A stretch of 64,000 nt of DNA, taken from Pirellulales bacterium. GTDB taxonomy: Bacteria; Planctomycetota; Planctomycetia; Pirellulales; Lacipirellulaceae. The DNA is taken from contig JAHBXQ010000004.1 of the NCBI GenBank assembly GCA_019636345.1, positions 62,001 to 126,000 on the forward strand, in the 5' to 3' direction. The notes below the pieces were generated by a model. The model searched no databases. It worked only from the letters and a program-made list of their open reading frames with translations, and was not told the DNA's origin. Both the position numbers and the translations under genes were made by a program. Position 1 is the stretch's first letter; each line of letters starts with the position of its first letter. Shown here piece after piece: positions 9,164 through 43,597 of the stretch.

Positions 9164-11218
9164 TCATCGCGGGCCGATGCTGTGAAACGGAATGGTCCTG
9201 ACGACCGGGACGCGGTCGGCGAGGGACCGACGCGGCTGCAGCGTGAACTGGTCGTCCTCGACGACCCCGACTTCGTCAAGCTGGTCCGTCTCCAGTTGCA
9301 AGTTGTTGCGAAACGTCAAGAGGTCCATGTGCTGGTCCATGCCGTCGTTCACGTGAAGCCATTGGTCGCAACCGACGGCCACGTTGTGCTCGATGACGTT
9401 GCCCTTGGGAAGCATGGGGTCGTCCTCCATAATGCCATGAAGCAGCGGGTAACGCGTGCGCCATTGCTCTCCGCGGTAGCCGACGCGCTCCGCTTTCGCC
9501 AGCAGGTTCCAACTGTCGCGGGGATCGTCCCAGACCGTGCGCGTCAGTCCGCGAGCGTCGGCGTGAATCGCCTGTCGGCACGCGACGAAAACGTTGCCGC
9601 GGACGAGATTGTCGCGTCCGCCGCCGATGAACGTGGCCCGACTCGCGCGGTAGAAGACGTTCCCCGCAATCGTGTCGCCGCTGTCGCAGTCGTCGAGATA
9701 GACTCCCATGGCGCCGACCTGTCCGAAGCTGGTCAGGTGGTGAATGAAATTGTGACGGACGACGTTGCCGCGGCTCGCCCAATCGCGCCCGGTGTAGATC
9801 GCTCCGACGTCCGACGTCTCCAAGGCGACATGATGCACCTCGTTCAGTTCGATCACGTGCTCGTTGCCGCCGTAAATGACGGCCGAGTGGGGGGCGAAGG
9901 CGATTTCGTTGTGGGCGACGCGATTGCCGACGCCATGGAGACGCACGCCCGGGGCGTAGGTGCGCTGCAGGCGGCCGAATTCGCGGATGCGGCAATCGAG
10001 GACCGAGCAATTGCCGCAGACGAGCGTCTTGCGCACGCCGCAGTCGAGGTCGACCCCCCCGCGACCTAGCTGGTGCAACTGGCATCGCTCGATCCGGCAA
10101 TCGAACGAGTCGCGGACGACGGCTCCATACCCGCCCAGATTCCGGACCGTGCACTGGGCCACGACCACGTCGCGGCAACCTCGCACGTCGAATCCGTCGC
10201 CGTGGCCTCCTTCGAGCGTCAGGCCCCGCAGCGTGACGTGCGCGGCGCCGCGGACGGTAACGATCGGGGCGTCCAAGTCGGACAGCAGCGTTTCCTCTTC
10301 GGCGACGGATCCGGGCGGATAGAAGTAGAGGACGTTCGCCGTTCGGTCGAGCCACCACTCGCCGGGCGCGTCGAGTTCGGCCAGAACGTGCACCGCGTAG
10401 TATCGCCGGGGAAACCGCTTCAACCAGGCGTCCTCAGGGAAGTCAAAGCGATGTTTTGCCGCCAGCGCGAGCCGCTTCTTGGAGAGGTCGATTTCGGCGA
10501 TCTGAAGCACCTCGTCGGCCCAGTCGCGACTCCAATATCCGTGGAGCCACGCGCCGCGTTCGACGTTCCATCGGTCCGGGCGCGGGCCGGCGTAGACGAT
10601 CGTGCCGCCGGCGCCGCGCGAGGCGTCGACCGCATCGCGGCGGACGACTTCGTCGAATTCGGCCCAGCCCTCGTTCGGCCAGCGGGCGGGGGTCATCGGT
10701 TTGCCGCCGAAGTACAACTCCGGCGCCGGCCAAGCGCCGTGCCAGCTTGGCGGAAGTTCCGGAAGCGGCCCGACTCCCAACGCGGCGAGGTCGACTTGCA
10801 GCACGTGCGAACGAATCTCGTCGGCGATCTCCGCCGCGGGACCGCCGGCCGCAGGCCTCCAGGCCGACCCGGGGATCGTAGTCCCGGCGAGCAGCCGCAC
10901 GGGGCCCGGACCCTCCCGGCAGATCTCGACGCGCGAATGTCGGCCTCGCAATTCCACCGTCTGGCGAATCGGATAGTCGCCCGCAGTCAAGCGGATCGTC
11001 GCCACGGCGTCGATGTTCGATACGTCCGCTTGGCGCCAAGTGCGAAGCCGCTGCAGGGCCTCGTGCAGGCTCGCCAGCGGCGCGTCGGCCGTCCCGGCGG
11101 CACGGTCGTCCCCATGCGGAGCGAGGCGCCATTCACTCCCCGCCGCCTGCGTCGGGGCGAATCCGCACACGACCGCCGCGAGCAGGGCGCTTGGCAGGCT
11201 TAGCTTCAGGCGCTTCAT
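9164..11218 (-). CDS. Exported right-handed beta-helix protein, GH141-like
   Basis: The protein (684 aa) has a signal peptide (MKRLKLSLPSALLAAVV to TQAAG). A carbohydrate-active N-terminal part follows with LYFGGKPMTPARWPNEGW. A parallel beta-helix comes next, with turns such as VTVRGAAHVTLRGLTLEGG, CRDVVVAQCTVRNLGGYG and HEVIELNEV-like repeats. The pattern FGGKPMTxARWPNEGW followed by a beta-helix resembles GH141 (fucosidase/xylanase) and related families. GH141 is my best guess by memory, not by alignment. It is part of the minus-strand glycan run, and its stop lies 81 bp before the alginate-lyase-like gene. Confidence 0.65.
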   Translation of the reverse strand: MKRLKLSLPSALLAAVVCGFAPTQAAGSEWRLAPHGDDRAAGTADAPLASLHEALQRLRTWRQADVSNIDAVATIRLTAGDYPIRQTVELRGRHSRVEICREGPGPVRLLAGTTIPGSAWRPAAGGPAAEIADEIRSHVLQVDLAALGVGPLPELPPSWHGAWPAPELYFGGKPMTPARWPNEGWAEFDEVVRRDAVDASRGAGGTIVYAGPRPDRWNVERGAWLHGYWSRDWADEVLQIAEIDLSKKRLALAAKHRFDFPEDAWLKRFPRRYYAVHVLAELDAPGEWWLDRTANVLYFYPPGSVAEEETLLSDLDAPIVTVRGAAHVTLRGLTLEGGHGDGFDVRGCRDVVVAQCTVRNLGGYGAVVRDSFDCRIERCQLHQLGRGGVDLDCGVRKTLVCGNCSVLDCRIREFGRLQRTYAPGVRLHGVGNRVAHNEIAFAPHSAVIYGGNEHVIELNEVHHVALETSDVGAIYTGRDWASRGNVVRHNFIHHLTSFGQVGAMGVYLDDCDSGDTIAGNVFYRASRATFIGGGRDNLVRGNVFVACRQAIHADARGLTRTVWDDPRDSWNLLAKAERVGYRGEQWRTRYPLLHGIMEDDPMLPKGNVIEHNVAVGCDQWLHVNDGMDQHMDLLTFRNNLQLETDQLDEVGVVEDDQFTLQPRRSLADRVPVVRTIPFHSIGPR

Positions 11219-11239: not shown

Positions 11240-13003
11240 CTAACTCGAGACACGCGCAACAGCGCCCGCAGCGGCGGCTTGGCCGACGGCGACAAGCCGC
11301 AGACCCGCCGTCGCGAGCATCCCGAATGCGAGCGCCGCCAATGTCGCCGCAGGGGGCTCGGGGACAGGCTGCGTCGTCAGGCTCGTCGTCGCTGCGATCG
11401 CCCCTCCATAAGTGCGACCGAATCGGTCCCGCCACACGGCCAAGTCGGCGGCGTCGCCCGCCGCGAATCCGCCGTGGTTTCGCTGCCAAGCGAGGAAGTC
11501 GCGTCCGTCGACGACGTTGTCGCCGTCGAAGTCTCCCGCGAAGGAGGCCAAGTAGGTGCTTCCCGGCCCGACGTCGCTCACCGTGAGCGGGCGGAAATCA
11601 AGCTGCGCGCCAACCAGCGGAAACTGGCTCGATTCGCGGAAACCGACCGGATCGAGCACGAGTCCCGGATCGACGCCGACGCCGACTCCTGGCGGCGTAT
11701 AGCCCGGAGTCCCTGACCCGGTCGACCACACGACGTTGCCCGACCACTGATTCGAGACGTCGGGGGCGTTGTTCTCGCGGCGAATCGCTTGGCCCGCGTT
11801 GTTCACGATCAGGTTGTCGCGAATCTCGTTGCCGGAGGGGGGCGTGTCGATGAACGCTCCGCTGACGGTGCTGCCGTAGAACTGCCCGTAAATGAGGCTG
11901 AAGTCGCCCGTGTTGACGATCGTGTTGTTCGCCACCAGCGCGTCGCGGAACGGTTCGTAGGGGACCTCCGACTCTCTCCCGGCGCCGAGGATCATCCCCC
12001 CCTTGAGATTGCCTGTTTCCGGTCCGTAGAACCCCTCGAAGTAGTTGTTGGTGACGGTATGACCGGAGCCGTAGGCTCGGATCCCGCGGCCGTTAAGGAA
12101 GTAATTCGAGTCGACGACGTTGTCGTCGCCGGCGCGCAGGACGAGTTGGTCGTTATTGTGGTCGAACGTGTTGTAGCGGAACACGTTCTGCGAGCTCTTC
12201 GAGGAGACGAGCTCCGACGAACTGGCGTTGTCCTTCCACAGGTTGTGCTCCACGGTGGTCCGATACGCGACGTCGGCGGACGACCCCCAACTCAACTGCA
12301 ACGTCTCGAACCCGGCGTGACCGCTCCAGTAGTTGTACCGGAACAGATTGTCGGTGTTGTCGGGATCGGTCGCGCCGCCGCCGACGCGGACGACGATGTT
12401 CTTGTTGTTGTTCAGAAACTGGCTCCGTTCGACGACGTTGTTCTTCGATCCCAGGGTGAGATGGAGGAACATCGTGTTGTTCGACGCGTTGTCGGCGGGG
12501 TTCGGGCTGCTGAGACCGCAGTCGACGATCGTCAGATTGCGCAGCACGTTGTTGCTGGCTCCCCGAAGTCGGACGACCGTCATTTTGTCCGACGAGCTCG
12601 TGCCGGGGATTTTGACGTTGTCGAAGTTGAACCCGTCGAGCGTCCAGTAATCCCGTTCCAGCCGCAGCTTGGCGCTATCGCCGAGACTGCTGCCGGTGAA
12701 CGTCACCCCGCCGATCGACTCGGCCTGAAACGTGATCGGATTTGCGGCCGTGCCGTGCTTGCCGTTGATCCGCACGGGGAAGTCGTACGTGCCGTTCTTG
12801 ACGACGATGACGTCCCCCGGATTGGCGCCGGCGAGCGCGGCGTTGATCGTCGTTTGGCTGTCGACGTGCCACGTGGCGGCGGTCGACGGCTGTGCGCACG
12901 CGAGCGCCCAGGCCGTCGCCCCGACGATCGCGAGGCGCAGCCGCAGGGCGTCGGCCCGCTGGTCCGAGGGTCGAATCGTTTGCGGCGATGACGTCGTTTG
13001 CAT
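11240..13003 (-). CDS. PL6-family polysaccharide lyase with dockerin-like and PEP-CTERM tail
   Basis: The protein (587 aa) has an export signal ending near AQPSTAAT. A PL6/chondroitinase-B beta-helix follows, with the early signature NPGDVIVVKNGTY and the catalytic segment SSELVSSKSSQNVFRYNTF plus LVLRAGDDN, which supply the Lys and Arg expected in PL6. Near the C-terminus are a dockerin-like FDGDNVVDGRDFLAWQR and a PEP-CTERM sorting tail (VPEPPAATLAAL, hydrophobic, then basic). It is probably surface-anchored by exosortase. The ATG overlaps the stop of the RuBisCO-like gene by one base and has GAGAGG upstream, so the two are translationally coupled. Substrate is likely a uronate polymer. Confidence 0.85.
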   Translation of the reverse strand: MQTTSSPQTIRPSDQRADALRLRLAIVGATAWALACAQPSTAATWHVDSQTTINAALAGANPGDVIVVKNGTYDFPVRINGKHGTAANPITFQAESIGGVTFTGSSLGDSAKLRLERDYWTLDGFNFDNVKIPGTSSSDKMTVVRLRGASNNVLRNLTIVDCGLSSPNPADNASNNTMFLHLTLGSKNNVVERSQFLNNNKNIVVRVGGGATDPDNTDNLFRYNYWSGHAGFETLQLSWGSSADVAYRTTVEHNLWKDNASSSELVSSKSSQNVFRYNTFDHNNDQLVLRAGDDNVVDSNYFLNGRGIRAYGSGHTVTNNYFEGFYGPETGNLKGGMILGAGRESEVPYEPFRDALVANNTIVNTGDFSLIYGQFYGSTVSGAFIDTPPSGNEIRDNLIVNNAGQAIRRENNAPDVSNQWSGNVVWSTGSGTPGYTPPGVGVGVDPGLVLDPVGFRESSQFPLVGAQLDFRPLTVSDVGPGSTYLASFAGDFDGDNVVDGRDFLAWQRNHGGFAAGDAADLAVWRDRFGRTYGGAIAATTSLTTQPVPEPPAATLAALAFGMLATAGLRLVAVGQAAAAGAVARVSS

Positions 13004-14310
13004 CAAGTTGTCCTCTCTGTTTCACCAAGTCGCCCCTGAGCGGACGCGCCGGCTTTGCCAAATGCTTTCAGCGATTGCTGCAGTTCCGGATGGTTGCGGG
13101 CGTAGTCGGCGAGCGTGGCGCCGCTGACGGCGGCTTCCCAGGCTTGGCGAATAGCTCGACACCCCGCGGCGGGTCCGCCCGGATGAGCCATCACGCCCCC
13201 CCCCGCCAAGTACATCAGATCGACCGTCCCGGTGCGGGCGAAGGTCTCGGGCGCCTGCCCGCCCCACTGTCCCGACGACACGACCGGCATCGCCCGATCG
13301 TCGCCGAACATCGGCGTCAGGCACGCCTTGATCGAGCGCTCGACCGAGTCGTCCGACTCGCAGAACTTGTTCTGCAGGCCGTTGACGTGCAGGTGATCGA
13401 CCCCTGCCAAGCGCCAGATCTTCTGCCATGCTGCATACTCGACGCCGACGCCGGGGCTGCGCGAAAAGAGTCCCCACCCGTTGCGGTGCCCATGGATCGG
13501 CACCTGGGAACGCCGCCGCAGGGCCAGCGCTCCGGCCGGGCCGACGTGATGCATGCTGATCATGACGCAGGTCCCCCCGTGGGCGACGACCGCGTCGTGG
13601 TGACGGTACATTGCGTCGAGCTCGTCCGACACGTTGAAGGCGTACATCGCCTTGCGACCGTTCCGGTCGGCGAGTTCGTTGATCACGCGCATCACTGCTG
13701 CGACCCGTTCCGCCAGGGGCGAGTGCGGCGGGTTGGCCAGCAGTTCGTCGTCCTTGATGAAGTCGACCCCCGCCTCGACCAGCGTGCGAACCGTCGCGGC
13801 CGTTTCCGCGGGGCTGAGCCCCACGCTTGGTTTGACGATCGTGCCGATGAGCGGGCGAGCGAACGCTTCGGCCAATCGGCGGGTCCCTGCGACGCCGAAT
13901 TGCGGGCCGGGAAGCGCCGCAAACGCCTCGGGGAGTTCCAAGTCGAGCAGCCGCAGGCCGGTAAACTCGCGCAACTCGAACAAATTGCCCGTGACGGTCG
14001 CCAGCAACGTCGGCAGGTTGACGCCCATGTTCTCCAACGGGAATGCCAACACGAGCTCCGCTCGCTGATACTGCGGCGCTCCGCCGGCGAAAGGAGGCTG
14101 CGCCCCCCCGGGGAGCGTCGGCTTCTCGGCGACGTCCAGCGGCGTGATCCGCTCGACGTGCGCCAGATGCCGTCTGCGCAGTTCGTCCGTCTCGCCAGGC
14201 ACGCGCACGAACGTGCCGCATGACTGCTCGCCGGCGAGCGCCGCGACCGCTTGCTCCAGCGGATGCGGCGTCTCGATCCAGTAGGTTGCGCGGACGAACT
14301 CGCGAGCCAC
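13003..14310 (-). CDS. oiaX: RuBisCO-like protein, probable 3-oxo-isoapionate-4-phosphate transcarboxylase/hydrolase
   Basis: The protein (435 aa) is of RuBisCO large-chain type, with no signal peptide. Landmarks are GTFVRVPGE, LPTLLATVTGNLFEL, GTIVKPSVGLSPAET, VDFIKDDELLANPP (the carbamylated-Lys region), PIHGHRNGW, VDHLHVNGL and SSGQWGGQAP. Departures from true RuBisCO place it among RuBisCO-like (form IV) proteins. It closely resembles OiaX, which splits 3-oxo-isoapionate 4-phosphate into 3-phosphoglycerate and glycolate. The presence of apnO, oiaK, apsD and apnL 20 kb away supports this. It starts at GTG with AGGA 9 nt upstream. It is the only clearly cytosolic metabolic enzyme in this run of exported proteins. 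Other RuBisCO-like proteins act in methionine salvage, but no such genes are nearby. Confidence 0.8.
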   Translation of the reverse strand: MAREFVRATYWIETPHPLEQAVAALAGEQSCGTFVRVPGETDELRRRHLAHVERITPLDVAEKPTLPGGAQPPFAGGAPQYQRAELVLAFPLENMGVNLPTLLATVTGNLFELREFTGLRLLDLELPEAFAALPGPQFGVAGTRRLAEAFARPLIGTIVKPSVGLSPAETAATVRTLVEAGVDFIKDDELLANPPHSPLAERVAAVMRVINELADRNGRKAMYAFNVSDELDAMYRHHDAVVAHGGTCVMISMHHVGPAGALALRRRSQVPIHGHRNGWGLFSRSPGVGVEYAAWQKIWRLAGVDHLHVNGLQNKFCESDDSVERSIKACLTPMFGDDRAMPVVSSGQWGGQAPETFARTGTVDLMYLAGGGVMAHPGGPAAGCRAIRQAWEAAVSGATLADYARNHPELQQSLKAFGKAGASAQGRLGETERTT

Positions 14311-14337: not shown

Positions 14338-15831
14338 TTACGAACGACGAGCCTGGCGCTCGCCCATGGCGACGGTCGGCACTTCAAATCCTGGGCGATC
14401 TTGCCGGCGCAACAAAGCGTTCCCGGCTTCCGAACCGGGGCCGACGAATCGCTCGGACTGCGGATCGAAGGTCAGCACCGGACCGAGACGGAAGTCGCGC
14501 GCCGCCTGGGGACCGTCGTGAGCGACGGCCACGTTGCGCAGTTGCTCGACGAGCGCGACGGCTTTGTCGCCGCCGGCAAAAGCGCTCTGGATGTCGTCCA
14601 GGACGGCGGCGCGGTCGGACTCCTCGAGGGCGGCGCCAGCGCGATAGGCGACGTTGGCCAAGCTGCACCATTCGGTCGAGTTGTGCCCCGTCTCGGCCGG
14701 CGCTTTCAGTATGCTGGCGTCGCCGGTGCGCACGGCCTTGATAAAATTCGCTTGATGGCCGCCGCCGCCGTTGCCTGTGAACTCGCGGATCTTCTTGCCG
14801 GCCGCATCGAACGCGGCGCCTCGGCCGCGCTGGCCCTCGAGACGTCCGCCGGCGCAGAAGGCCGTGTAACCGCTGCCAGGGCCCGGCGTGGTGGGCGAAG
14901 ACTTGCTTCCTGGCTTCACCGCGACGTTGCAGACTCCGACGATCACCGGAATGGAGCCCGTATCGAGCACGGCCGCATGGACGTTGGGCGTGTTGCCCGC
15001 GTCGTGCCACGCGAATCTCCCGCCCCCGGCGACGATCCGGCGAGGCAGGGCGACGCGGTCCTGGAAGACGACGTTCCGCACGTCGTCGACGATATGAACG
15101 CCCCAATTGCCCATCTCGCCGGAGCCGGTGTTCCAGTCCCAATGCCAATCATAATGGAACTCCTTGCGGAAGATTGGCTCGTCCTGAGCCGGTCCCAGCC
15201 AAAGGTCGTAATCGAGCGTGGCGGGGGCTGCGAGGGGGGACGCGAGCTTGCCGATCGTTCCTCGCATGCCGAAGCGGCTGACTCGTACGGACTCGACGGG
15301 GCCGAGCGCGCGATCCTCGTGCAGAAACTGCTTGAGCTCGTCCTGCATCGGGTCGGACCTCTGCTGCGTTCCGACTTGGCAGATGCGATCGTAGCGGCGG
15401 GCGGCGTTGACGATCTGGCGGCCTTCCCAGTTGTAATGTCCCAGCGGTTTCTCGACGTAGACGTGCTTCCCGGCTTGCATCGCCCAAATCGCCGCCAGCG
15501 CGTGCCAGTGATTGCACGTGGCGATCGCCACGGCGTCGATCTCGGGCGAGTCGAGCATCGCCCGCAGGTCCTTCCAACGCTGCGAGCCGGGAACTTGTCC
15601 TGCGAGCTCGTCCAGCCGGGCTTCGTCGGGGTCGCAGAAGCCGGCGAACCGGACGCCCGAAATGCCTTTGAACGCGTTGAACAATTGCCCTCCCCGCCAG
15701 CCGCAGCCGACAAGGCCGAGATTCACTTGTCCGTCGCCGCCAGCGGCGCGGACGCGTCCGCCGGACAGAGTCGCCAGCGCCCCGGTTGCGGCGCCGCAGT
15801 ACAGGAAGGATCGTCGCGTGAGCTTGGACAT
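14338..15831 (-). CDS. Tat-exported Gfo/Idh/MocA-family oxidoreductase
   Basis: The protein (497 aa) begins MSKLTRRSFLYCGAATG, a twin-arginine signal. A Rossmann domain follows (NLGLVGCGWRGGQL), then the family motif AGKHVYVEKPLGHYNWEG and C-terminal features GEMGNWGVHIVDD and WLGPAQDEP. Such exported, NAD(P)-binding oxidoreductases are abundant in planctomycetes. They probably act on sugars or sugar acids in the periplasm, using a tightly bound cofactor; the substrate is unknown. I used ATG 15831, with AAGGA 9 nt upstream, because the 61 codons before it are Arg-rich and overlap the neighbour gene. Confidence 0.85.
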   Translation of the reverse strand: MSKLTRRSFLYCGAATGALATLSGGRVRAAGGDGQVNLGLVGCGWRGGQLFNAFKGISGVRFAGFCDPDEARLDELAGQVPGSQRWKDLRAMLDSPEIDAVAIATCNHWHALAAIWAMQAGKHVYVEKPLGHYNWEGRQIVNAARRYDRICQVGTQQRSDPMQDELKQFLHEDRALGPVESVRVSRFGMRGTIGKLASPLAAPATLDYDLWLGPAQDEPIFRKEFHYDWHWDWNTGSGEMGNWGVHIVDDVRNVVFQDRVALPRRIVAGGGRFAWHDAGNTPNVHAAVLDTGSIPVIVGVCNVAVKPGSKSSPTTPGPGSGYTAFCAGGRLEGQRGRGAAFDAAGKKIREFTGNGGGGHQANFIKAVRTGDASILKAPAETGHNSTEWCSLANVAYRAGAALEESDRAAVLDDIQSAFAGGDKAVALVEQLRNVAVAHDGPQAARDFRLGPVLTFDPQSERFVGPGSEAGNALLRRQDRPGFEVPTVAMGERQARRS

Positions 15832-15878: not shown

Positions 15879-18185
15879 TCAAATGCCGTGACCAAGTAGT
15901 GCGCGCAGCGCGACGACGGCGACGCCGATCGCGGTCAGCGCCGTCGAGGCGGGCTCGGGCACATTGTCGGCGCCGGCCATCGCGGCGATCGCGACGCCGA
16001 ACTGCCGCTGCCAAGTCAAAAAATCGGATCCGTCGAGATCGCCGCCGAACCGAGCGCCGAAGCCGTTGACAGGATCGATGAGATCGGCCGAACTCACTTG
16101 GCCGTCGCCGTTGAAGTCGCCCGGCAGCGTCGTCGCCGCCGCCAGGACGAGATTGTCCAAGTAAGCGGTCCCGGCGGTCGTGCCGTCGGGATCAAACAAG
16201 TAAAAGCGGAACTCCACCGGCTCCGTAAGCTCTTGAAACTCGTCTCCGATGAGACTGATGAAGTAGGTCTCGAAGCGATCGGAAGCGACGTCGTCCGCCG
16301 CGAGGTTGTTCGTGAAGCCGTCGATGCTCGAGCGAACGAAGTACCGGTCGTTCGCGCCGGAGTCGCTGGAGCGGCGCAGATCGTACGTCAAGTGCGACAG
16401 CGACAAGCTTGTTCCCGCAACGGGGGAGATCGTGAATCCCACGTAGTCGTCGGCCGCCACGGCTGCGGCTTGCGAGGCCGTGTTCGCGCTCGACAGCGCA
16501 ATCGCCAGCGAACCGGAGGGATTTCCCAGGCCGTTCTGCATCGCCGAGATCCCAGACCCCAGGGTCACGTTGCCAGCGACGGAGTTCGGGTGCGCATCGT
16601 TCGATTGCAGCCATGTCGCGCCGGCGGTGAACTGATATCGGGCGACCGTGACCGGATTGGCCGGCGCCCGGAAACTGCCCAGTTGCATCAGTCCTTCAGC
16701 CAAGTAACCGAATCCGTCCACGGCGTCGTAGCGATCTTCGCCGCCGTGGGTCCGGAACATGTCGCCGGTCCACAGCACGTGGATCGCCTCGTGGGCCAGT
16801 CGTTCGGCGTGCTTGCGATAGGCAGGGTCGTCGAGTCGATCGGCCGCTTTCAGCATAATCTGAATTGCGTGACCGTACGCCTCGGCGTAGGAACCGACGC
16901 CGTCTTTGGCGTTCAGAGCCGGTCGCTCTTCCATGATTCCGCGCGTCATCCGCTGAATATGCGTCTCCAGGAACGGCACGTCGGCCGGGAAGGCGGTTTC
17001 GCTCGCGTGGTGGAGATGGATCAGCGTCGCCGCGAGTCCCAAATAGTGGTCGTGCGACGGAATCTGCACGTTCCAGGGGCTGCTGTAGTCGAACGGCGCG
17101 TAGGGAGCTCCGGAATTGTCGAAGCTCGGCGAGCCGTCGTTGACGTTCACTTTGCCCCAGTAGCGCTCCGTCGGTTCGTGCCAAGCGTACTGCAGATAGG
17201 CGTGCACGCCGTCGCGCGCCATCGTGACGTAGTCCTGATCGCCGGAGTATTCGGCCGCGATGAGCAACTTGCCGGCCCATTCGCCGATCTCCGTCGTCGA
17301 CACCTTGTAGTCCCACCGCGACGTGTTGGGCATGTTGTTGCGGACCAGCCCGGTCGTGGCCCCGCGGGCCGTGTAGCTGTAGGTCGCGATCTTCTTGGCG
17401 TGGTCGAGATACTTCTGCTTCTCGACCTCGGGGACGAGTCGGGCGAGCCAAGTGAGCGACTCGACCAGCACGCCGCCGGCGTCGATGAAGGCGTGCGGCG
17501 AGTCGGTGAACGTGTCATGCCGGCTGAAGAACCCGGTCGTCGTGTCGTAGCCGTCCTGGACGTGATGCTCGCCGGCTAGATCAATGTGCGTCTTCGTCAT
17601 GTCGGGATCGAGCGCCCAAAAGAAGTCCCAGTTGGGCGTATAGGGCCGCATCTCGTGGTAACTCCCGGAGAACCCCATGTACCGATCGTTGTAGTAGTCG
17701 TTGACGGCGTCCGTCGGGCTGTCGAACGCGCGATAGAACCAGTGCTCGCCCCACTTCCACAATCCCGAGCGAGAAATGCGGCTGCCGTCGCGGCCGTTGC
17801 TGGGCGCCAGGTACGTTGCGGCGTACAGGTTGGCGGCGTCGTGATACTTCGAGTCCCCCGTGACGGTCGACAACGCCAGCGCGGCGTTGATCTGGGGGAT
17901 GTCAAAATAGAGCGTCGAACCCTTCGGCGCGGGATTTTCGCGATAGATCCGTTTGCCTGCCGCCGCGTAGTCGCTCGACGGATAGTTCTTGGTGTTGGTG
18001 TCCAGCGACGCCATCCACAGCGGGGTGTGGAGCGGTCCGTATCTGTCCAGACCGTACTGCAAGTAGACGTCGAAGTGTCCCTGCACCAGCGGCAGCAATT
18101 GCACCTCGGCCGCCGAGCCGGTCGCGGAGAGCCCCGTCGCGAGGATCGTCGCGAAGAACGCCGTTCGAATCGCAGTCATGTTCAT
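15879..18185 (-). CDS. Exported all-alpha protein with dockerin-like and PEP-CTERM tail (function unknown)
   Basis: I do not recognise a named family for this 768-aa protein. It has a signal peptide (ending GSAAE). A helical domain of about 460 residues follows, rich in Trp, Tyr and His (LQYGLDRYGPLHTPLWMASLD, WKWGEHWFYRAF, HDHYLGLAATLIHLHH, GGEDRYDAVDGFGYLAEGLM), suggesting an (alpha/alpha)6 toroid as in many lyases and unsaturated-glycan hydrolases. A beta-rich region, a dockerin-like GDFNGDGQVSSADLIDPVN and a PEP-CTERM anchor (VPEPASTALTAIG) follow. It is paralogous to the 21182-22765 gene. Its place among GH and PL genes suggests glycan cleavage, but that is inference. Confidence 0.75.
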   Translation of the reverse strand: MNMTAIRTAFFATILATGLSATGSAAEVQLLPLVQGHFDVYLQYGLDRYGPLHTPLWMASLDTNTKNYPSSDYAAAGKRIYRENPAPKGSTLYFDIPQINAALALSTVTGDSKYHDAANLYAATYLAPSNGRDGSRISRSGLWKWGEHWFYRAFDSPTDAVNDYYNDRYMGFSGSYHEMRPYTPNWDFFWALDPDMTKTHIDLAGEHHVQDGYDTTTGFFSRHDTFTDSPHAFIDAGGVLVESLTWLARLVPEVEKQKYLDHAKKIATYSYTARGATTGLVRNNMPNTSRWDYKVSTTEIGEWAGKLLIAAEYSGDQDYVTMARDGVHAYLQYAWHEPTERYWGKVNVNDGSPSFDNSGAPYAPFDYSSPWNVQIPSHDHYLGLAATLIHLHHASETAFPADVPFLETHIQRMTRGIMEERPALNAKDGVGSYAEAYGHAIQIMLKAADRLDDPAYRKHAERLAHEAIHVLWTGDMFRTHGGEDRYDAVDGFGYLAEGLMQLGSFRAPANPVTVARYQFTAGATWLQSNDAHPNSVAGNVTLGSGISAMQNGLGNPSGSLAIALSSANTASQAAAVAADDYVGFTISPVAGTSLSLSHLTYDLRRSSDSGANDRYFVRSSIDGFTNNLAADDVASDRFETYFISLIGDEFQELTEPVEFRFYLFDPDGTTAGTAYLDNLVLAAATTLPGDFNGDGQVSSADLIDPVNGFGARFGGDLDGSDFLTWQRQFGVAIAAMAGADNVPEPASTALTAIGVAVVALRALLGHGI

Positions 18186-18260: not shown

Positions 18261-19322
18261 CTACGTCGGCGCGCGGTTCTCAATTTGGAGGCGCTCGGCG
18301 CGCGCCATCGTGTCGGCGTACGTCTCCAATTCGAACTCGCGCAGAATGTCCGCCACTCGGACGTCGGGCGAGCGGCTCTCGATGATCGACCACTCCTCTT
18401 CGGCGTAGGTCGTGATCACGACGTCGCGGCCGTACTTGGACTGGATGTCGGGAAAGCGAGCGTTGAAGGGCCAAGTGTGGAGGAAGGTCTTCTCCAGGTT
18501 CACCGCGGCGCACGCCCAACGGTTCCAGCGGCTCGTCGCGGCAAGGGTTTCGCCCGTCACATCGACGATCTTCGACGTGTCTTTGCGCGTGCTCGACGCG
18601 ACGACCAGTTGGTTCTGACAAGCTCGCATGTTCACCGCTCGACCCGCGGCGAAGGCCGAAGGGAAACAAACGATCTCCGCCCCCGCGTCGCGCAGCCGCC
18701 GCCAGCCGTCGTGCCACTCGACGTCGAAGCAGATCTGAGCCCCGACTCGTCCGAAATCGGTCTCGAACACAGGCGGTTGCAACGGACCGGGGGAGACGCC
18801 GTACTCCATCTCGCCGACCGTCGGGTAGGTCTTGCGATACTCGCCGCACGGCCGGCCTTGGCGATCGATGATGACCACGGCGTTGTAGTACCGCCCCGCC
18901 TCGACCGTGTAGCCCGAATAGGCGACGTAACACTGGTGCGATTTCGCGAATGCGACGAATGGCGCGGCGAGCTCGCCCAGCGGGGCTTCGGCGATCTCGC
19001 GCACCGGCGGTCGGCTGCCGGCGCCGCCGGGAAAAAGGAACATCTCCGGCAGGCAGACGAGGTCCGGCTGTTGCGCAGCCGCCGCTTCCATTCGAGCGAG
19101 CGTCTCCCGCGTGAGGGCCGCAGGCGTGGTTCCCGTCATCCCGTCCTGAGCGATCGTGGCGATCCAGACTTCGCGCGGCAGTCGACTGGGACGCTCGGGA
19201 CGGGTCGCCGTCGACGCACAAGCGGCGCCGGGGGCCGTCGCTGCGGCTCCGGCGCTCAACGAAGCGACGGCCGACCGGCGGAGAAACGTGCGCCGCGCGA
19301 TTGCTGAAGGAATTGTGCTCAT
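18261..19322 (-). CDS. Tat-exported carbon-nitrogen hydrolase (nitrilase superfamily)
   Basis: The protein (353 aa) has a Tat-type signal (ARRTFLRRSAVASLSAGA). The nitrilase catalytic triad follows: Glu in DLVCLPEMFLF, Lys in GEYRKTYPTVGE and Cys in GAQICFDVEWHDGW. The family hydrolyses amides, nitriles or carbamoyl groups. Export of such an enzyme into a polysaccharide-degradation locus is unusual and hints at an amide substituent on the substrate or a partner. The start ATG at 19322 lies 12 bp after the GH140-like gene, so the two are likely co-transcribed. Confidence 0.82.
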   Translation of the reverse strand: MSTIPSAIARRTFLRRSAVASLSAGAAATAPGAACASTATRPERPSRLPREVWIATIAQDGMTGTTPAALTRETLARMEAAAAQQPDLVCLPEMFLFPGGAGSRPPVREIAEAPLGELAAPFVAFAKSHQCYVAYSGYTVEAGRYYNAVVIIDRQGRPCGEYRKTYPTVGEMEYGVSPGPLQPPVFETDFGRVGAQICFDVEWHDGWRRLRDAGAEIVCFPSAFAAGRAVNMRACQNQLVVASSTRKDTSKIVDVTGETLAATSRWNRWACAAVNLEKTFLHTWPFNARFPDIQSKYGRDVVITTYAEEEWSIIESRSPDVRVADILREFELETYADTMARAERLQIENRAPT

Positions 19323-19334: not shown

Positions 19335-21110
19335 TCAGTCAGTCGTCGCTTGCCGGCGATGCGTCCGCAGCACAAACGTCCAATCCTCGTCGCCCGGAGT
19401 CGGCGGCGGCGGAACGCGCAGCCGCTTGCCTGAATACTCAAGGGAGGCGACGTCGTGCGAGTTTCCCGTGCGCGGATCGAACCAGCTGGCCGCGTACCGG
19501 CGCGGTTCCAGGTCGTTCAATTCCAAAAGCTTGCCCCCGTTGCCTCGCGGGAGGTAGACGACGTAACCTTCGCCGAGGATCGCAGCGCAAAGCGGCGGGC
19601 TGACGTCGTCGGCGCTCGGGATGCGGGTCTTCGCGCCGTTCACGAGCGCCATGTCGCGCCGCGGCTCCAGGCGGTTCCAGGAGAACTCGCGGAGCAAATC
19701 GACGGCGTGTCGCACTTGCGCCGAGCCCGGCATTTGCATCGCTTCGGGCCAGGGGATCGTCTCCGGCGAGGGCTTGCCGGTTTCGCCCTCCCGGTCGTCC
19801 GGGTCGTAGAACTGCCAGACGCCGAACGCCCCGTAGCCGTATCCCGCGGAACCGCTGAGATACGCCGCCCACGCTTGCCACCGTGCGTGATAGGCGCCCT
19901 GCGGATCGGAAGCGCGTTCGTAACAGGCTTCGCTGCAAAACACCGGCTTGACGGGCGACAAGGCCCGATTCTCGGCGGTCCTGCTGACGATGCGGAACAT
20001 CGACCGGACGTTCTGGCCTGTTTGCAGCCAGTTGTGATCGAGCCACGACTCGTGATGAAAGGGTCGTGACGATTGATGCTGAAAATGCTCGTCGCCGGCG
20101 ACGAGGCGACTGCTGGGGTGGATCGAGAGGGGAGTCCGGTAAGGATTATGCCGCTGTACGGCTTCGCCCAACGCGCTGAACTGCCGCGGCGTCCAACCGC
20201 AATCCGTCAGCGCGTACTGATACTCGCCCGACAGGGCCCACAGGGACGGGAACGCTCCGTACCGAACGGCGCAGTACTCGCTCAGCCTCCGCGCCGTGAC
20301 GAAATCGATCGGGCAGCGCTTCGTTTTCCCCCACCATGAGAACGGCGCGGCTGTGATCATGCCGGCCGAACGGATCGCCTCCATCCGGCGGTCAAGGAAT
20401 CGAAAGTATTCGGGGTTGAGACGCGTCAACTCGCGATCCAGAAACGCTCGCCCCCCTTCGTTGCGCTGGCCTTCGGGGTTGTTCGGCTCGTCCCCGAAGC
20501 CGTTCAGGAAGCGCATCAAGACCGTGTTGAACCCTTTGCTGCGCCGATCGGCGAGGTACTGATGAAACGGTCCGTCGGCTTGGTCGCCCAGCCCGCACCG
20601 CGCCGTGTTCCCCCCCCACAACGTGTCGGCCAGCAGCAGCACGGGAGAGCCGTCGGCGTACTGAAACGTCCTGCCGTCGGCGCTGATCCGAATCGCGCCG
20701 CGCAAGCCGGGATTGTCGACCAATTGTCCCGGTGCGGGAGCGATCGCTTCAATTTCGCCGCCGACGCCGGCAAGTCGCGAGTCGCTCGACTGCGTGCGAT
20801 AGCGCCATGTGCCGGCAGTCGGGGGAGCGAAGCGGACGAGCCATCGCCGCGGGCCGTCCCAGCATCCCTCGATCTTCAGCTCCTGGCCCGAATCGGCATG
20901 AACGAACGAGACGGCGACCGGGAACTCGTACCAAGGGTGCTCGGCGGCAGACGTCAGCGCGAGATCGATCGTCGTCCAAACCGCGCAGCTTCGGCGGGCA
21001 GACCCGTCGTCGACTGAACCGGTCGCCGAGAGCGCGACGCCGCCGATCGATCCCAGCGCGATGCTTGCGATCAAGACGGTCGTACGCATGATGGCCCGTG
21101 GCGCCTGCAT
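19335..21110 (-). CDS. Exported DUF5060-DUF4038 glycosidase, GH140-like apiosidase candidate
   Basis: The protein (591 aa) has a signal peptide (RTTVLIASIALGSIGG). A DUF5060-type beta domain follows (about residues 35-125; WYEFPVAVSFVH, GCWDGPRRWLVRFAPPTAGTWRYR). A DUF4038/apiosidase-like TIM barrel comes next (about 140-480), with DGSPVLLLADTLWGG, RSKGFNTVLMRFLNG, SLWALSGEYQY and AYLSGSAGYGYGAFGVWQFY. The last part is a collagen-binding-2-like beta domain (YVVYLPRGNGG, ASWFDPRTG). GH140 enzymes release apiose-containing oligosaccharides from rhamnogalacturonan II. Together with the apiose catabolic genes this makes apiosidase the leading hypothesis. ATG 21110 has GAGAGG upstream; ATG 21089 is an alternative start. 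Confidence 0.78.
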   Translation of the reverse strand: MQAPRAIMRTTVLIASIALGSIGGVALSATGSVDDGSARRSCAVWTTIDLALTSAAEHPWYEFPVAVSFVHADSGQELKIEGCWDGPRRWLVRFAPPTAGTWRYRTQSSDSRLAGVGGEIEAIAPAPGQLVDNPGLRGAIRISADGRTFQYADGSPVLLLADTLWGGNTARCGLGDQADGPFHQYLADRRSKGFNTVLMRFLNGFGDEPNNPEGQRNEGGRAFLDRELTRLNPEYFRFLDRRMEAIRSAGMITAAPFSWWGKTKRCPIDFVTARRLSEYCAVRYGAFPSLWALSGEYQYALTDCGWTPRQFSALGEAVQRHNPYRTPLSIHPSSRLVAGDEHFQHQSSRPFHHESWLDHNWLQTGQNVRSMFRIVSRTAENRALSPVKPVFCSEACYERASDPQGAYHARWQAWAAYLSGSAGYGYGAFGVWQFYDPDDREGETGKPSPETIPWPEAMQMPGSAQVRHAVDLLREFSWNRLEPRRDMALVNGAKTRIPSADDVSPPLCAAILGEGYVVYLPRGNGGKLLELNDLEPRRYAASWFDPRTGNSHDVASLEYSGKRLRVPPPPTPGDEDWTFVLRTHRRQATTD

Positions 21111-21181
21111 CAAACCTCTCGTCCTCGGTGCGACAGGCCGGAGCCGCGGTCCGACCGCTGCTCCCGGCGTCGCAGCGGCTG

Positions 21182-22765
21182 CTAGAAGTGAAAACCCTGC
21201 AACTCGCCGTCGTCGCCCGACTCCAATTCCATGAGCGCTAGAAACAGCACGCCCAGTCCATCGACGGCGTCGGCCACGTCCTCGCCGGGATGACTGCGAA
21301 ATGCGCCGATGTCGGCGATGTAGAGTCGCCCGACCGCCTCCTCGGCGACCTGTTCCGCCAACTGCCGATACTCCGGCTGGTTGAGTATCCGACCGGCCCG
21401 CGAGAGGAAATGAATCGCACGGCCGTAGCTGCTGGCAAACGCCCCGTCAATCATCGGGCCTGAGTGTCGCTCTTGCTGGTACTGGGCGGGCAAGCTGTTG
21501 CGGACATGCTCGGCCCACCGCTCGGCGCCGGCGCGGTATTCGCCCCGGCCGGTCTTCTCGTAAAAGTCGAGGCACGCCTCGGCCATTTCCATTGGATAAT
21601 CATGCGTCGGGAACAGCGGCTCCCAGACGTCCGAGTGCCTGGTCGGAGCAAACGGTTCCGAGGTGTTCGGCTTGCTCGGCTGGCCGTCCTCGACGTTGAC
21701 CGAGCCGAAGTACTTGCCCGCTTCGGCGTCCCAGCCGTAGCGGAGATAGGCGAGCATGCCCGGCTGCGGGATTTCGGCGAACTCCGCGTTGCCTGACAAT
21801 TCGCCGCAGCGCAGCAGCATGGCGCCCCACAGTCCGACTTCGGAGGAGGCGCTCTTGTAATCCCAGCGTCGCTGCACGGGCTGATTGCGGATAAGTCCGG
21901 TCGCCTCGCCCCGTTGTGCCGCGCTGTAGCGCGCGACCTTGAGGGCCGTTTCGATCAACGCGTCCTTGTCCTCCACGTCCTTGGCGGCCAGCCAGCAGAG
22001 CGATTCCGCGATCACGCCGCCCGCCTCGAGGAACGGATAGCTGGCCGCGACGTCCTTCTCGGTCGGTCGATACACGGCGACGGTCGTCTTGGCGTGGCGA
22101 TCGAAACTGCCCGTGGTCTGGTCGGTGACGTGGTGCGTGCCGAACGCGCGGATGCATCGCGCCGTTCGCTCAGGCGAGTTTCGCCAGAATGCTTCCCAGT
22201 TGATCGGCAACGGCCGGGCCTCGTGCGCGGGGTGACCGATCTTTTCCATCCGATCGTCGAAGACGTGATACCAGAGGTGATTGCCCCACAAGAACAAACC
22301 GTTCTCCTGGGAGACGCAACGAGCGAAAAAGTCGTTGATGTACGCGTCGCAGGCGGCGGCGTACTTGGGATCTCCCGTCTTCTCGCTCAACTGATACGCG
22401 GCGACGAGCGTCGGGAGGTCCCAGTAAAGATTGCTGCCTCGCGGGGCGTGAATCCGCCGATAGACGCGGCGACTTGCGTTGTCGACCTTTTCGTTTTGTC
22501 CGCCGTTCGCCAAATCGATCGAAGCCAGCCAGAGCGAGTTCTTGTCCTTGCCGTAGCGATCAAGGCCCGTCGCCAGGACGCGGTCGAAGTGGCGTTGGAC
22601 CAGTTGCTGGTAACGACCTTCGCCGCGGGGAACTGCGACGGAGCCGGCTTCGGCGGCCAGAACCGCCGCGGGAATTGCCGCCGCCAGCGCCCCGCAACCG
22701 AGGATTCGAGTCCAAGGCATGGCCGGTCGCCGGCAAGTCGCCCGTTGCTGCGAGCTGACATTCAT
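21182..22765 (-). CDS. Exported all-alpha protein, paralogue of the 15879-18185 product (function unknown)
   Basis: The protein (527 aa) has a signal peptide (PWTRILGCGALAAAIPAAVLAAEAG). A helical domain follows, collinear with the 768-aa protein: LATGLDRYGKDKNSLWLASID, LYWDLPTLVAAYQLSEKTGDPKY, FLWGNHLWYHVFDD, GTHHVTDQTTG, RRWDYKSASSEVGLWG and EDVADAVDGLGVLFLALME. It lacks the beta domain, dockerin-like repeat and PEP-CTERM tail. Its conserved aromatic and His clusters suggest an (alpha/alpha) toroid glycan-processing enzyme. I cannot name a family. The start was set at ATG 22765, with GGAA 7 nt upstream; the longer frame to 22873 looks non-coding. Confidence 0.75.
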   Translation of the reverse strand: MNVSSQQRATCRRPAMPWTRILGCGALAAAIPAAVLAAEAGSVAVPRGEGRYQQLVQRHFDRVLATGLDRYGKDKNSLWLASIDLANGGQNEKVDNASRRVYRRIHAPRGSNLYWDLPTLVAAYQLSEKTGDPKYAAACDAYINDFFARCVSQENGLFLWGNHLWYHVFDDRMEKIGHPAHEARPLPINWEAFWRNSPERTARCIRAFGTHHVTDQTTGSFDRHAKTTVAVYRPTEKDVAASYPFLEAGGVIAESLCWLAAKDVEDKDALIETALKVARYSAAQRGEATGLIRNQPVQRRWDYKSASSEVGLWGAMLLRCGELSGNAEFAEIPQPGMLAYLRYGWDAEAGKYFGSVNVEDGQPSKPNTSEPFAPTRHSDVWEPLFPTHDYPMEMAEACLDFYEKTGRGEYRAGAERWAEHVRNSLPAQYQQERHSGPMIDGAFASSYGRAIHFLSRAGRILNQPEYRQLAEQVAEEAVGRLYIADIGAFRSHPGEDVADAVDGLGVLFLALMELESGDDGELQGFHF

Positions 22766-22872
22766 GACTGTTCCGCAAGTGTGTGAATAGAATGAAAATA
22801 TGAATAGAAGACGTGGGCGGTCGCCTGCCGTCAGAGCGCACGCGACCGCGCTCAGCCCGAACGGCGGGCGCA

Positions 22873-23292
22873 TTATCGGCTAAGATCGAAGTTCGCCTGG
22901 TCGGTGCCCCCCGGCGGGACGGCGAACGTGAGCGTAGTTCGGGAGTTGTATTGAGCCGGGATCGTCTCGCGCGACAGCACCTTTTCGTTGTCGTCGACGA
23001 CGCGCGTCGTAATCATCACGCGATTCAGTCCGACTGCGGCGCCCTCCGGGCCGCGGAACACGGTCAGCGAGTATCGACCTTGTTCGTCGGTTTCACCCAT
23101 GGCCAGTTGCTTGACCGCCTCGGGATCCTCCTGCGGCGCCGGCATGAATCGCACTTTGGCCTTCGGAACCGGCTTGCCGTTCAAGGTCACTACCCCGGAG
23201 ACCGGCGAGATCTCCACCCGCGACCCGCAGCCGACCGTCGCAGCCAGTCCGAGCAGCAGCCACGCGCAGGATCGTGTCGACGCCTTCACCAT
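22873..23292 (-). CDS. Small lipoprotein with carboxypeptidase-regulatory-like fold
   Basis: The protein (139 aa) has a lipoprotein signal (MVKASTRSCAWLLLGLAATVGCGS, lipobox TVGC at about 19-22). One beta-sandwich domain follows, starting PVSGVVTLNGKPVPKAKVRFMP and including GETDEQGRYSLTV. This is the common planctomycete carboxypeptidase-regulatory-like lipoprotein, usually encoded beside DUF1559 proteins, as here. The function is unknown. Confidence 0.85.
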   Translation of the reverse strand: MVKASTRSCAWLLLGLAATVGCGSRVEISPVSGVVTLNGKPVPKAKVRFMPAPQEDPEAVKQLAMGETDEQGRYSLTVFRGPEGAAVGLNRVMITTRVVDDNEKVLSRETIPAQYNSRTTLTFAVPPGGTDQANFDLSR

Positions 23293-25473: not shown

Positions 25474-27000
25474 TTACTTGCCGACTTGCTCAGGAAATGC
25501 CTCCAGACGCTCGTTCAGCTCTCGATTCAACGTTGCCAGCACCTCTTGATGATCAGGGGAGCCGGCAAGGTTCTCCCACTGATTTGCGTCAGCGGCCGCA
25601 TACAACTCCTGGCTGTCGTCGCGATAGCGGATGAAGTGCCATTCGGAACCGATCAGGGCGTAATTCCCGCGATCCCGGACGCACAGAACCGGAGCGACCG
25701 AGGACGCAGCCCCGCTCTCGCGCAGCTCGGGCAGCAGCGACCGTCCGTCCAGCCCGGCCCGCGGCGGCAGTCGACAGGCGTCCAACAGCGTGGGATAGAC
25801 GTCGAGCAAACTCACCGGCCGATCGCTGCCGACCCCTTCGCGCCCGCGGGGCAGTGCGATAACCAGCGGAACTCGCGTTGCGGTGCGCCACAGCGTCCAC
25901 TTTCCCCAGTGCTGCTTCTCTCCTAAGTGCCAGCCGTGGTCGCTCATTAACACGACGATTGTCGACTGTCCGTGGGGCCCGGCGTCGAGCGCGTCCAACA
26001 GTTTTCCCACCTGGGAGTCGACGAAGGACACGCAGGCCAAGTACCCGCGGGTCGCCGCCCGCCATTGGTCGTGCCGAAGCACGCTCGCGTGCAAGCCGGC
26101 CGTGTCCGCCTCCAGCGCGATCTCGCGGGCGAAAGCCGGCAAATCGTCAAGATCGTCGGCCGGCGAATGGGGCAAGACGACTGTCTCTTCCGGCAAGCGG
26201 TCGAAGTACTGCTGCGGCGCGAACAAAGGGATATGAGGTCGATAGAACCCCACCGCCAGGAAGAAGGGCTTGTCGCGCGGCTCGCGCAACCGAGCGGCCG
26301 CCCATTCGGCAATTTGGCCGTCGCCCATGTCCCGATCGGTCACGGGGAGAGGGCCCCAATCGAACGACTCGCCCTGGGGAGAGCCGCGGAGTCGGTCGCT
26401 GGGCATCCCGTTCAAGGGGAGTGAGATCGTTTGGCCCTTCAGCGTGGCTTGATGTCGCTGGGCCAGCGTGCCTTTGCTCGGCAATTCGGCGTCCGAATAG
26501 CGAACGTCTCCGGGCGAGAAAGGGCTCCAACGCAAGTGCGGAAACGACCCCTTTTGGAACAATCCGCGACTTGATTGATGCAGCAACTTGCCGGCGCCGA
26601 GCGTCTCGTAGCCGGCCGCTGCAAAATGCTCGGGAAGGAGCACCAGTTCGGGAGCCGCGCTGCGGATGTCCTGTTCGTCGTTGGCAAGAACGCCGGTCCG
26701 CAGCGGGTGACAGCCGGAGAAGATCGCCGCCCGCGACGGGTTGCACAGAGGCGCTGCGCAGTGGGCGTTGGTGAATCGAACCCCCCGGCGAGCCAGTCGA
26801 TCGAGATTGGGCGTCTCGGCCTGGGGGTGGCCGTCATAGCAGCCGATCCAGTCGTTCAGATCGTCGACCATGATCAACAGGACGTTGGGTCGGTCCGCCT
26901 CGACAATTCGGCCAAGAGCCGTCCCCCAGGAGGCAACGAGCCCGAGGATGGCTGCCCGAAGGCATGAGCCGCGACACAGTGAGGTCATGGGAGGAGGCAT
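25474..27000 (-). CDS. Exported type I sulfatase (iduronate-2-sulfatase-like)
   Basis: The protein (508 aa) has a signal peptide (CLRAAILGLVASWGTALG). The sulfatase N-terminal signature is RPNVLLIMVDDLNDWIGCY, with metal-binding Asp-Asp. The formylglycine site is CNPSR at Cys86, in the form C-x-P-S-R. The second metal site is VVLMSDHGWHLGEKQHWGKW. It resembles iduronate-2-sulfatase-type enzymes. It should remove sulfate esters from the target polysaccharide outside the cytoplasm, after activation by a formylglycine-generating system not seen here. It lies between gntR and the palindrome at 27093. Neither candidate ATG (27000 or 26988) has a good ribosome-binding site. Confidence 0.92.
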   Translation of the reverse strand: MPPPMTSLCRGSCLRAAILGLVASWGTALGRIVEADRPNVLLIMVDDLNDWIGCYDGHPQAETPNLDRLARRGVRFTNAHCAAPLCNPSRAAIFSGCHPLRTGVLANDEQDIRSAAPELVLLPEHFAAAGYETLGAGKLLHQSSRGLFQKGSFPHLRWSPFSPGDVRYSDAELPSKGTLAQRHQATLKGQTISLPLNGMPSDRLRGSPQGESFDWGPLPVTDRDMGDGQIAEWAAARLREPRDKPFFLAVGFYRPHIPLFAPQQYFDRLPEETVVLPHSPADDLDDLPAFAREIALEADTAGLHASVLRHDQWRAATRGYLACVSFVDSQVGKLLDALDAGPHGQSTIVVLMSDHGWHLGEKQHWGKWTLWRTATRVPLVIALPRGREGVGSDRPVSLLDVYPTLLDACRLPPRAGLDGRSLLPELRESGAASSVAPVLCVRDRGNYALIGSEWHFIRYRDDSQELYAAADANQWENLAGSPDHQEVLATLNRELNERLEAFPEQVGK

Positions 27001-30911: not shown

Positions 30912-30966
30912 CGAGCGAATCGCTCGAAGCCGCGACGACCTCCGCAACGTACGCGTTCAAGTCGGC

Positions 30967-33446: not shown

Positions 33447-33520
33447 GGCGGTTTCTCTCCAAGGGGCTGCGTCGTCGACCGGCGCGCGGGACTCGCTCCG
33501 CCGCACCGTCGCCGGCGCTG

Positions 33521-42533: not shown

Positions 42534-42567
42534 GGATGGAACCCCCTGAGAGACGGCGGGTCGTCGA

Positions 42568-43554: not shown

Positions 43555-43597
43555 ACCAAGTGACGGAAGAGAATTGGCCGGGAAGAGGTAGCGTCTA

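What the first reader, a model, noticed from the sequence alone, without database searches (positions are those of the whole stretch)
19335..21110. GH140-like apiosidase candidate in the same locus as the apiose pathway
A DUF5060-DUF4038-collagen-binding-like protein of the apiosidase type would release the very sugar the pathway consumes. With a sulfatase, GH29, PL6 and a GH141-like protein nearby, the substrate may be a sulfated, apiose-bearing pectin such as seagrass apiogalacturonan or rhamnogalacturonan II. That part is inference.
Basis: inference. Interest (0 to 1): 0.8.

Follow-up and report, generated by a model that had tools for sequence, protein, structure and literature searches.

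The report
Divergent apiosidase-like enzyme beside apiose pathway
A bacterium carries, in one gene cluster, the genes to burn the rare plant sugar apiose together with a probably secreted enzyme distantly related to the known apiose-releasing enzymes; it may free that sugar from a plant acidic polysaccharide, but its active site differs from that of proven apiosidases, so this needs a bench test.

Summary
It is the only PF13204 gene found in the genome and is second in a tight row of ten same-strand genes: PL2-like, this gene, nitrilase, PL2-like, oxidoreductase, OiaX, PL6, beta-helix protein, PL38-like, GH29. ApnO, OiaK, ApdH and ApnL homologues and a sugar ABC transporter lie 12-23 kb upstream. 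The link to apiose is strong.

It is not a typical GH140. In four free tree searches the clade holding both characterised apiosidases excludes it; AU tests do not reject grouping it with that clade. The nucleophile Glu is kept, the acid/base is Glu where GH140 has Asp, and two nearly invariant positions (Gln, His) are changed. No relative above 35% identity was found.

A second, unrelated-looking TIM-barrel glycosidase (31917-33524) overlaps ApnO and is a rival for apiose release.

"Sulfated seagrass pectin" is weak: the sulfatase lies outside the row, the genome has few sulfatases for its order, and two lyases belong to alginate-lyase-type families. Best reading (0.45): an apiose-releasing glycosidase of a new DUF4038 branch, acting on an unidentified apiose-bearing polyuronide.

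The parts
19335..21110 (-). Candidate apiose-releasing glycosidase: signal-peptide-like start, DUF5060, PF13204 (DUF4038) domain with E297 (acid/base position) and E395 (nucleophile), Collagen_bind_2
21182..22873 (-). PL2-like protein (PF06917, 46.5 bits; PDB 6ojk E 2e-5 over residues 90-263 only), first gene of the row
18261..19322 (-). Carbon-nitrogen hydrolase (PF00795) with Tat-like leader, 12 bp downstream of the candidate
15879..18185 (-). Second PL2-like protein (PF06917 25.0 bits, below cut-off 26.6)
14338..15831 (-). GFO/IDH/MocA oxidoreductase, Tat-like leader; 116 bits to NCBIfam BT_2158_fam glycoside 3-dehydrogenase (cut-off 750); the mechanical ORF starts at 16014, the first Met is at 15831
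13003..14310 (-). OiaX homologue (3-oxo-isoapionate-4-phosphate decarboxylase, RuBisCO-like)
   Evidence: NF042437 517 bits, cut-off 700; 69% to L032, 65% to L119
11240..13006 (-). PL6-family lyase; the Lys and Arg of the aligned SxKS and LRxG motifs are kept
9164..11218 (-). Right-handed beta-helix protein, weak similarity to GH141 BT_1002 (E 6e-6, residues 25-98)
7784..9082 (-). PF05426 alginate-lyase family (PL38-like, label recalled), 291 bits; PDB 3nfv 294 bits, 8bdq 201 bits
6300..7676 (-). GH29 alpha-L-fucosidase-like, last gene of the row
31917..33524 (-). Rival glycosidase: DUF6298 20.4 bits (below cut-off 28.1), NEP and ENETG motifs of a GH-A-type barrel, C-terminal part like the DUF4038 proteins; overlaps ApnO by 4 bp
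33521..34393 (-). ApnO-like (apionate oxidoisomerase; PF16896)
34415..35953 (-). OiaK homologue (3-oxo-isoapionate kinase)
   Evidence: NF042436 461.7 bits, cut-off 700
35958..36998 (-). ApdH-like dehydrogenase (GFO/IDH), 56% to the gene of L119
37001..38947 (-). ApnL homologue (apionate lactonase)
   Evidence: NF049900 344 bits, cut-off 750
39017..43653 (-). Sugar ABC transporter: permease 39017-40030, ATPase 40027-42210, binding protein 42568-43653
25474..27000 (-). Sulfatase; outside the tight gene row

Best explanation
A secreted, retaining exo-glycosidase with a DUF4038 TIM barrel (nucleophile E395, acid/base E297) that cuts D-apiose, or an apiose-bearing side chain, off a polyuronide whose backbone is opened by the lyases of the same gene row. 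Freed apiose is imported by the ABC transporter and oxidised and decarboxylated by ApdH, ApnL, ApnO, OiaK and OiaX. Shown: the gene, its domains, the gene order, the kept nucleophile, the outlying tree position. Inferred: secretion, co-transcription, the retaining mechanism, the apiose specificity, the transporter's sugar, the polymer.
For: Ten consecutive minus-strand genes, neighbours at most about 110 bp apart or overlapping, hold the candidate and OiaX (coordinates; families). Only PF13204 gene found in the genome. OiaX above 500 bits is in 2 of 392 sampled genomes of the phylum, and both have a PF13204 gene within 8 kb of it. Of 50 genomes reached through 50 of the 80 OiaX loci, 26 have PF13204; in at least 5 it lies within 30 kb of OiaX against 0.58 expected. 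PDB hits include 8t9w 'Apiosidase' (71.5 bits) and 3kzs/5msy (31.2 bits), which I recall to be BT1012; BT1012 is the beta-apiosidase of RG-II (PMC7939467, passages).
Against: Outside the apiosidase clade in four free tree searches; acid/base Glu instead of Asp; Gln (3kzs chain position 70) is Leu199 and His (222) is Gln367, where 71 of 74 aligned rows keep each. Gene linkage shows shared use, not which enzyme frees apiose, and a second barrel glycosidase overlaps ApnO. In three of the five linked genomes the linked PF13204 genes are weak members (best 62-71 bits). No usable model: AlphaFold2 with a three-row alignment gave mean pLDDT 33.
Confidence: 0.45

Rival explanations
1. The enzyme serves the same apiose-bearing polymer but cuts another bond; apiose is freed by another gene of the locus, first of all the barrel glycosidase at 31917-33524 that overlaps ApnO by 4 bp.
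For: Active-site changes at positions kept by 71 of 74 DUF4038 rows; position among branches with no characterised member known to me. The 31917-33524 protein has a leader-like start, NEP and ENETG motifs (read by eye) and a C-terminal stretch like the DUF4038 proteins (25 bits), and lies in the pathway block; a full DUF6298 protein also lies at the genome's second OiaX locus.
Against: A homologue of the 31917-33524 protein was found at none of the other OiaX loci compared (E 1e-8, 40% coverage), while homologues of the candidate were found at three (L049, L054, L119). No gene of the row other than the candidate belongs to a family known to me to release apiose.
Confidence: 0.35
2. Ordinary GH140 function with drift: an RG-II apiosidase whose sequence has diverged fast, acid/base Glu replacing Asp with the same chemistry.
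For: AU tests do not reject grouping with GH140; the FHxxxWLDxNxxQ and VWQFY stretches resemble GH140; six GH28 matches in the genome and a second OiaX locus with GH127 fit pectin or RG-II use.
Against: The GH140 clade stays closed to it with full support in each free tree; it keeps 56 of 101 GH140-conserved columns, no more than the other DUF4038 branches (52-62); no GH78, GH106, GH95, GH2 or GH33 among the 40 window ORFs scanned with Pfam; PL1 matches in the genome are weak.
Confidence: 0.15
3. Coincidence: an unrelated secreted glycosidase next to an apiose pathway fed by free apiosides.
For: PF13204 is common in the order (72 of 246 genomes over cut-off).
Against: Placement three genes from OiaX in one tight row; linkage above expectation.
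Confidence: 0.05

Closest known systems
GH140 beta-apiosidase BT1012 of Bacteroides thetaiotaomicron (PDB 3kzs, 5msy; that these are BT1012 is recalled) and the apiosidase 8t9w
   Same: PF13204-type barrel; alignment with 8t9w runs on through the C-terminal region; nucleophile Glu; many barrel motifs
   Different: Extra N-terminal DUF5060; Glu for Asp at the acid/base; Leu for Gln and Gln for His at two nearly invariant positions; outside their clade
DUF5060-DUF4038 proteins (PDB 4n0r; genome hits such as L002-L026 and L010-L030), no characterised member known to me
   Same: The DUF5060 region is covered by the alignment with 4n0r and, wholly or in part, by the best genome hits (DUF5060 itself was not scanned in them); acid/base Glu in the L002-type group
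   Different: At most 35% identity; the L002- and L010-type groups keep the Gln and His that this protein lacks
D-apiose oxidative pathway with OiaX (Carter et al. 2018, Nat Chem Biol; not read, known through PMC6302742 passages, and recall)
   Same: ApdH, ApnL, ApnO, OiaK, OiaX homologues and a sugar ABC transporter
   Different: OiaX sits apart, inside a polysaccharide-lyase row; scores below the curated equivalog cut-offs

Membership tests
GH140 (apiosidase) | PF13204 catalytic domain over its cut-off | tested here: met
   187.3 bits, cut-off 26.5
GH140 (apiosidase) | Falls inside the clade that holds the characterised apiosidases BT1012 and 8t9w | tested here: not met
   Clade closed to it at 100/100, 100/100, SH-aLRT 100. 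Grouping it with the clade is not rejected (AU 0.09, 0.12, 0.57); the forced tree scored better than the free quick search, and the test does not tell whether it then sits beside or inside the clade
GH140 (apiosidase) | Catalytic nucleophile Glu (BT1012 E284, number recalled; chain position 264) | tested here: met
   E395; E in 74 of 74 rows
GH140 (apiosidase) | Acid/base Asp (BT1012 D187, number recalled; chain position 167) | tested here: not met
   E297; 13 of 13 canonical rows have D
GH140 (apiosidase) | CAZy family assignment (dbCAN profile) | not testable with these tools
   No CAZy profiles on hand
GH140 (apiosidase) | Release of apiose | not testable with these tools
   Needs an enzyme assay
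D-apiose oxidative pathway, OiaX branch | OiaX, OiaK and ApnL over the NCBIfam equivalog cut-offs | tested here: not met
   Best hits but 517/700, 461.7/700, 344/750 bits
D-apiose oxidative pathway, OiaX branch | ApnO, ApdH, ApnL, OiaK, OiaX together in one locus | tested here: met
   Five homologues at 13003-14310 and 33521-38947; the same set in L119
Sulfated apiose-bearing pectin degradation locus | Sulfatase co-located with the apiosidase and lyases | tested here: inconclusive

The most novel reading that the evidence does not exclude
A new glycoside hydrolase family, related to GH140, with a Glu/Glu pair and a rebuilt sugar-binding site, that frees apiose from an apiose-bearing polyuronide not yet described: the row's PL6- and PL38-type lyases belong to families characterised on alginate, dermatan or glucuronan rather than on pectin (PDB names for alginate and chondroitinase B; the rest recalled), so the backbone may not be galacturonan at all.
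Probability: 0.12. Interest if true: 0.7.

Novelty: new variant of a known kind. Interest (0 to 1): 0.42.

Why it matters
Bacterial apiose pathways are known, but my searches of the open library listed nothing on how bacteria outside gut Bacteroides obtain apiose from plant polymers by a linked gene row (titles and starts of abstracts only). A row that joins OiaX with a DUF4038 enzyme and polyuronide lyases offers a testable source polymer, and a test of how far apiosidase activity spreads across the DUF4038 superfamily.

Tried and rejected
Structure: AlphaFold2 on the candidate with two other admissible sequences (L049, L054) gave mean pLDDT 33.2; no fold search was run on it.

L057 (Planctobacterium marinum) first looked like another linked DUF4038 gene (57.5 bits) but lacks the motifs and its genome has no PF13204 match: left out of the trees.

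Minus-strand ORFs 27218-28129, 28130-29287, 29568-30947, 30841-31812 and 7821-9167 had no Pfam hit and are probably antisense or out-of-frame shadows; ORFs with Pfam hits there are on the plus strand at 28097-29281, 29409-30911, 30862-31860 and on the minus strand at 7784-9082.

Sulfation, tested by counting sulfatases: 9 in the genome; 9 of 40 sampled genomes of the order (own included) have 9 or fewer.

Rows dropped: L057 from the trees; L057, L142, L049, L054, 4n0r and L126; L057, L142, L054 and 4n0r; those plus L172 (same protein as L049), L153 and L154. The OiaX tree used 63 of 83 rows (20 rows of related Proteobacteria left out by hand). The 30 kb linkage count is a lower bound: contig lengths were fetched for one stretch in each of 14 of the 26 PF13204-bearing genomes, and 'same contig' is inferred from equal contig length; the 10 kb count (2 of 80 loci, L049 and L054) covers the DNA held and the reach of my profile.

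Promoter-like and terminator-like sites were near chance level (3 against 1.9; 19 against 14.4). Polymer, habitat and species name could not be determined here.

It also mended the candidate's place in the row (second), the distance to the pathway block, the bit range of the weak linked genes and the wording on AU tests.

Full report
The observation. The minus-strand ORF 19335-21113 (592 aa from TTG, 591 from the ATG at 21110, with AGAGG upstream) is present at the stated coordinates. NCBIfam gave no match for it. The assembly (5.18 Mb, 15 contigs, 95.9% complete) has one PF13204 match, this one. The phylum is not told; planctomycete-type domains (DUF1559 in the window, PSCyt/PSD1 in L118; the link to planctomycetes is partly recalled) suggest Planctomycetota.

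The surroundings. From 22873 down to 6300, ten minus-strand genes follow each other with gaps of at most about 110 bp: PL2-like, the candidate, a carbon-nitrogen hydrolase, a second PL2-like protein, a GFO/IDH oxidoreductase, OiaX, PL6, a beta-helix protein, a PF05426 (PL38-like) protein and GH29. Three genes separate the candidate from OiaX. On the same strand, at 33.5-43.7 kb, lie ApnO-, OiaK-, ApdH- and ApnL-like genes and an ABC transporter. Between the two blocks is a plus-strand group (PEP-CTERM protein, GFO/IDH, xylose-isomerase-like), so one operon over the whole locus is unlikely. OiaX, OiaK and ApnL are the best hits of their NCBIfam models but below the curated cut-offs; I therefore call them homologues. 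The PL6 protein keeps the aligned Lys and Arg of known PL6 lyases (that these are catalytic is recalled). The PF05426 protein matches PDB 3nfv at 294 bits and 8bdq at 201 bits, both named alginate lyase or alginate lyase family (the PL38 label is recalled).

A second glycosidase. The protein at 31917-33524 overlaps ApnO by 4 bp. Pfam gives it only DUF6298 at 20.4 bits, below cut-off. Read by eye it has an NEP motif and an ENETG motif, as expected of a GH-A barrel (recalled), and its C-terminal part matches that of the DUF4038 proteins (25 bits with a profile built without the candidate). No homologue was found at the other OiaX loci compared. It is a real rival for the release of apiose.

Is linkage of PF13204 and OiaX more than chance? 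In 392 sampled genomes of the phylum OiaX above 500 bits occurs in two, the own genome (two copies) and G485; three more genomes have only remote matches of 221-251 bits. In G485 the five pathway genes lie together and a canonical PF13204 gene (413 bits) lies about 7.5 kb from OiaX on the other strand. PF13204 as such is not rare: 72 of 246 genomes of the order over cut-off. Of 50 genomes reached through 50 of the 80 OiaX loci, 26 have it. It lies within 10 kb of OiaX in 2 (0.19 expected, P 0.017) and within 30 kb in at least 5 (0.58 expected, P 0.0003) (the P values ignore relatedness of the genomes). In three of those five the linked genes are weak PF13204 members of at most 62-71 bits. So linkage is real but loose; the tight case is the window itself.

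Is it a GH140 apiosidase? Four maximum-likelihood trees were made. With 56 rows the clade of BT1012, 8t9w and 11 genome sequences has support 100/100 and excludes the candidate, which sits on a branch of 1.72 next to other long branches. With long rows removed (51 rows) the clade again closes at 100/100 without it. With 74 and 71 rows it again closes with SH-aLRT 100. Forcing the candidate and that clade to one side of a branch is not rejected (p-AU 0.091, 0.124, 0.574); in the last the forced tree was 4.4 log units better than the free quick search. So it was not found inside the proven clade, and whether it is nearest to it is open. The closest relatives in 297 genomes of the class and 392 of the phylum reach 35% identity at most; one genome of the same genus (72% complete) has no PF13204 match.

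Active site. On the alignment, chain positions 167 (D) and 264 (E) of 3kzs, which with a 20-residue offset correspond to the D187 and E284 that I recall as BT1012's catalytic pair, fall on E297 and E395 of the candidate. The nucleophile is E in 74 of 74 rows; the acid/base is D in 46 and E in 28, E being the rule in one large group (19 of 19 rows). At position 70 Gln is kept by 71 of 74 rows and is Leu199 here; at position 222 His is kept by 71 of 74 and is Gln367 here. Of 101 columns conserved in GH140 it keeps 56, like the other two large branches (52-58 and 53-62). A Glu/Glu pair is standard for clan GH-A enzymes (recalled), so activity is expected; the changed Gln and His make an unchanged specificity less certain.

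Which polymer? Four lyase-like genes argue for a polyuronide. The two PL2-like proteins fit galacturonan but are partial matches, one of them below cut-off. PL6 and PL38 families are known to me on alginate, dermatan and glucuronan. The genome holds six GH28 matches and only two weak PL1-type matches. The seagrass review describes apiogalacturonan without sulfate in the passages I saw (PMC7644952). So apiose-bearing polyuronide: likely. Sulfated or seagrass: not supported. RG-II: open, but the usual RG-II families were not among the 40 window ORFs scanned.

Literature. Searches for apiosidase (20 papers), apiose with planctomycetes (1, which names apiose only as a RuBisCO form IV role), GH140 with apiose (0), DUF5060 (1, on Lactobacillus jensenii), apiogalacturonan with glycoside hydrolase (4), isoapionate (1), and apiose with seagrass and bacteria (13) listed no title or start of abstract describing this arrangement. 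Passages of four papers were read, none in full. Carter et al. 2018 is not held and is cited from recall and from PMC6302742.

Verdict. Real, well placed and worth an assay; a plausible but atypical apiosidase of a new DUF4038 branch.

Noticed in passing
L118 (same genome, contig C6:168000-187999), OiaX at 9494-10852: A second OiaX-OiaK pair (56-57% and 42% identical to the window's) with no ApnO, ApdH or ApnL homologue in the 20 kb held, but with a PF01177 racemase-family gene, GH127, an SBF-type transporter, DUF6298 and DUF3826.
   Followed up: partly
L033-L067 (25 of the 80 genome contigs OiaX loci): A recurring OiaX-OiaK-PF01177 racemase set; GH127 homologues in 11 and GH78 homologues in 15 of the 80 loci. 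Of these 25 loci one has ApnO and none ApnL or ApdH; 22 of 80 loci have at least two of those three instead (flanks differ in length). It may serve another branched sugar acid, for example aceric acid of RG-II (hypothesis only).
   Followed up: partly
31917-33524 (-) and L118:14307-17471: DUF6298-type proteins at both OiaX loci of this genome, the only two matches in it (21 bits, below cut-off, in the window; 616 bits on C6); the window one looks like a GH-A barrel with a DUF4038-like C-terminal part.
   Followed up: partly
909-5180 (-): DabA plus a proton-antiporter-type subunit: an inorganic-carbon uptake pair (pairing recalled).
   Followed up: no
57749-58113 (-): tmRNA gene, near phenylalanyl-tRNA synthetase subunits at 59585-62768.
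   Followed up: no
40027-42210 (-): The ABC ATPase ORF is 727 aa, but the family matches begin near residue 226; the true start is probably later or there is an extra N-terminal region.
   Followed up: no
18261-19322 (-): A Tat-leader carbon-nitrogen hydrolase inside the gene row; a homologue (34%) also lies near OiaX in L041. Its role is unexplained.
   Followed up: no
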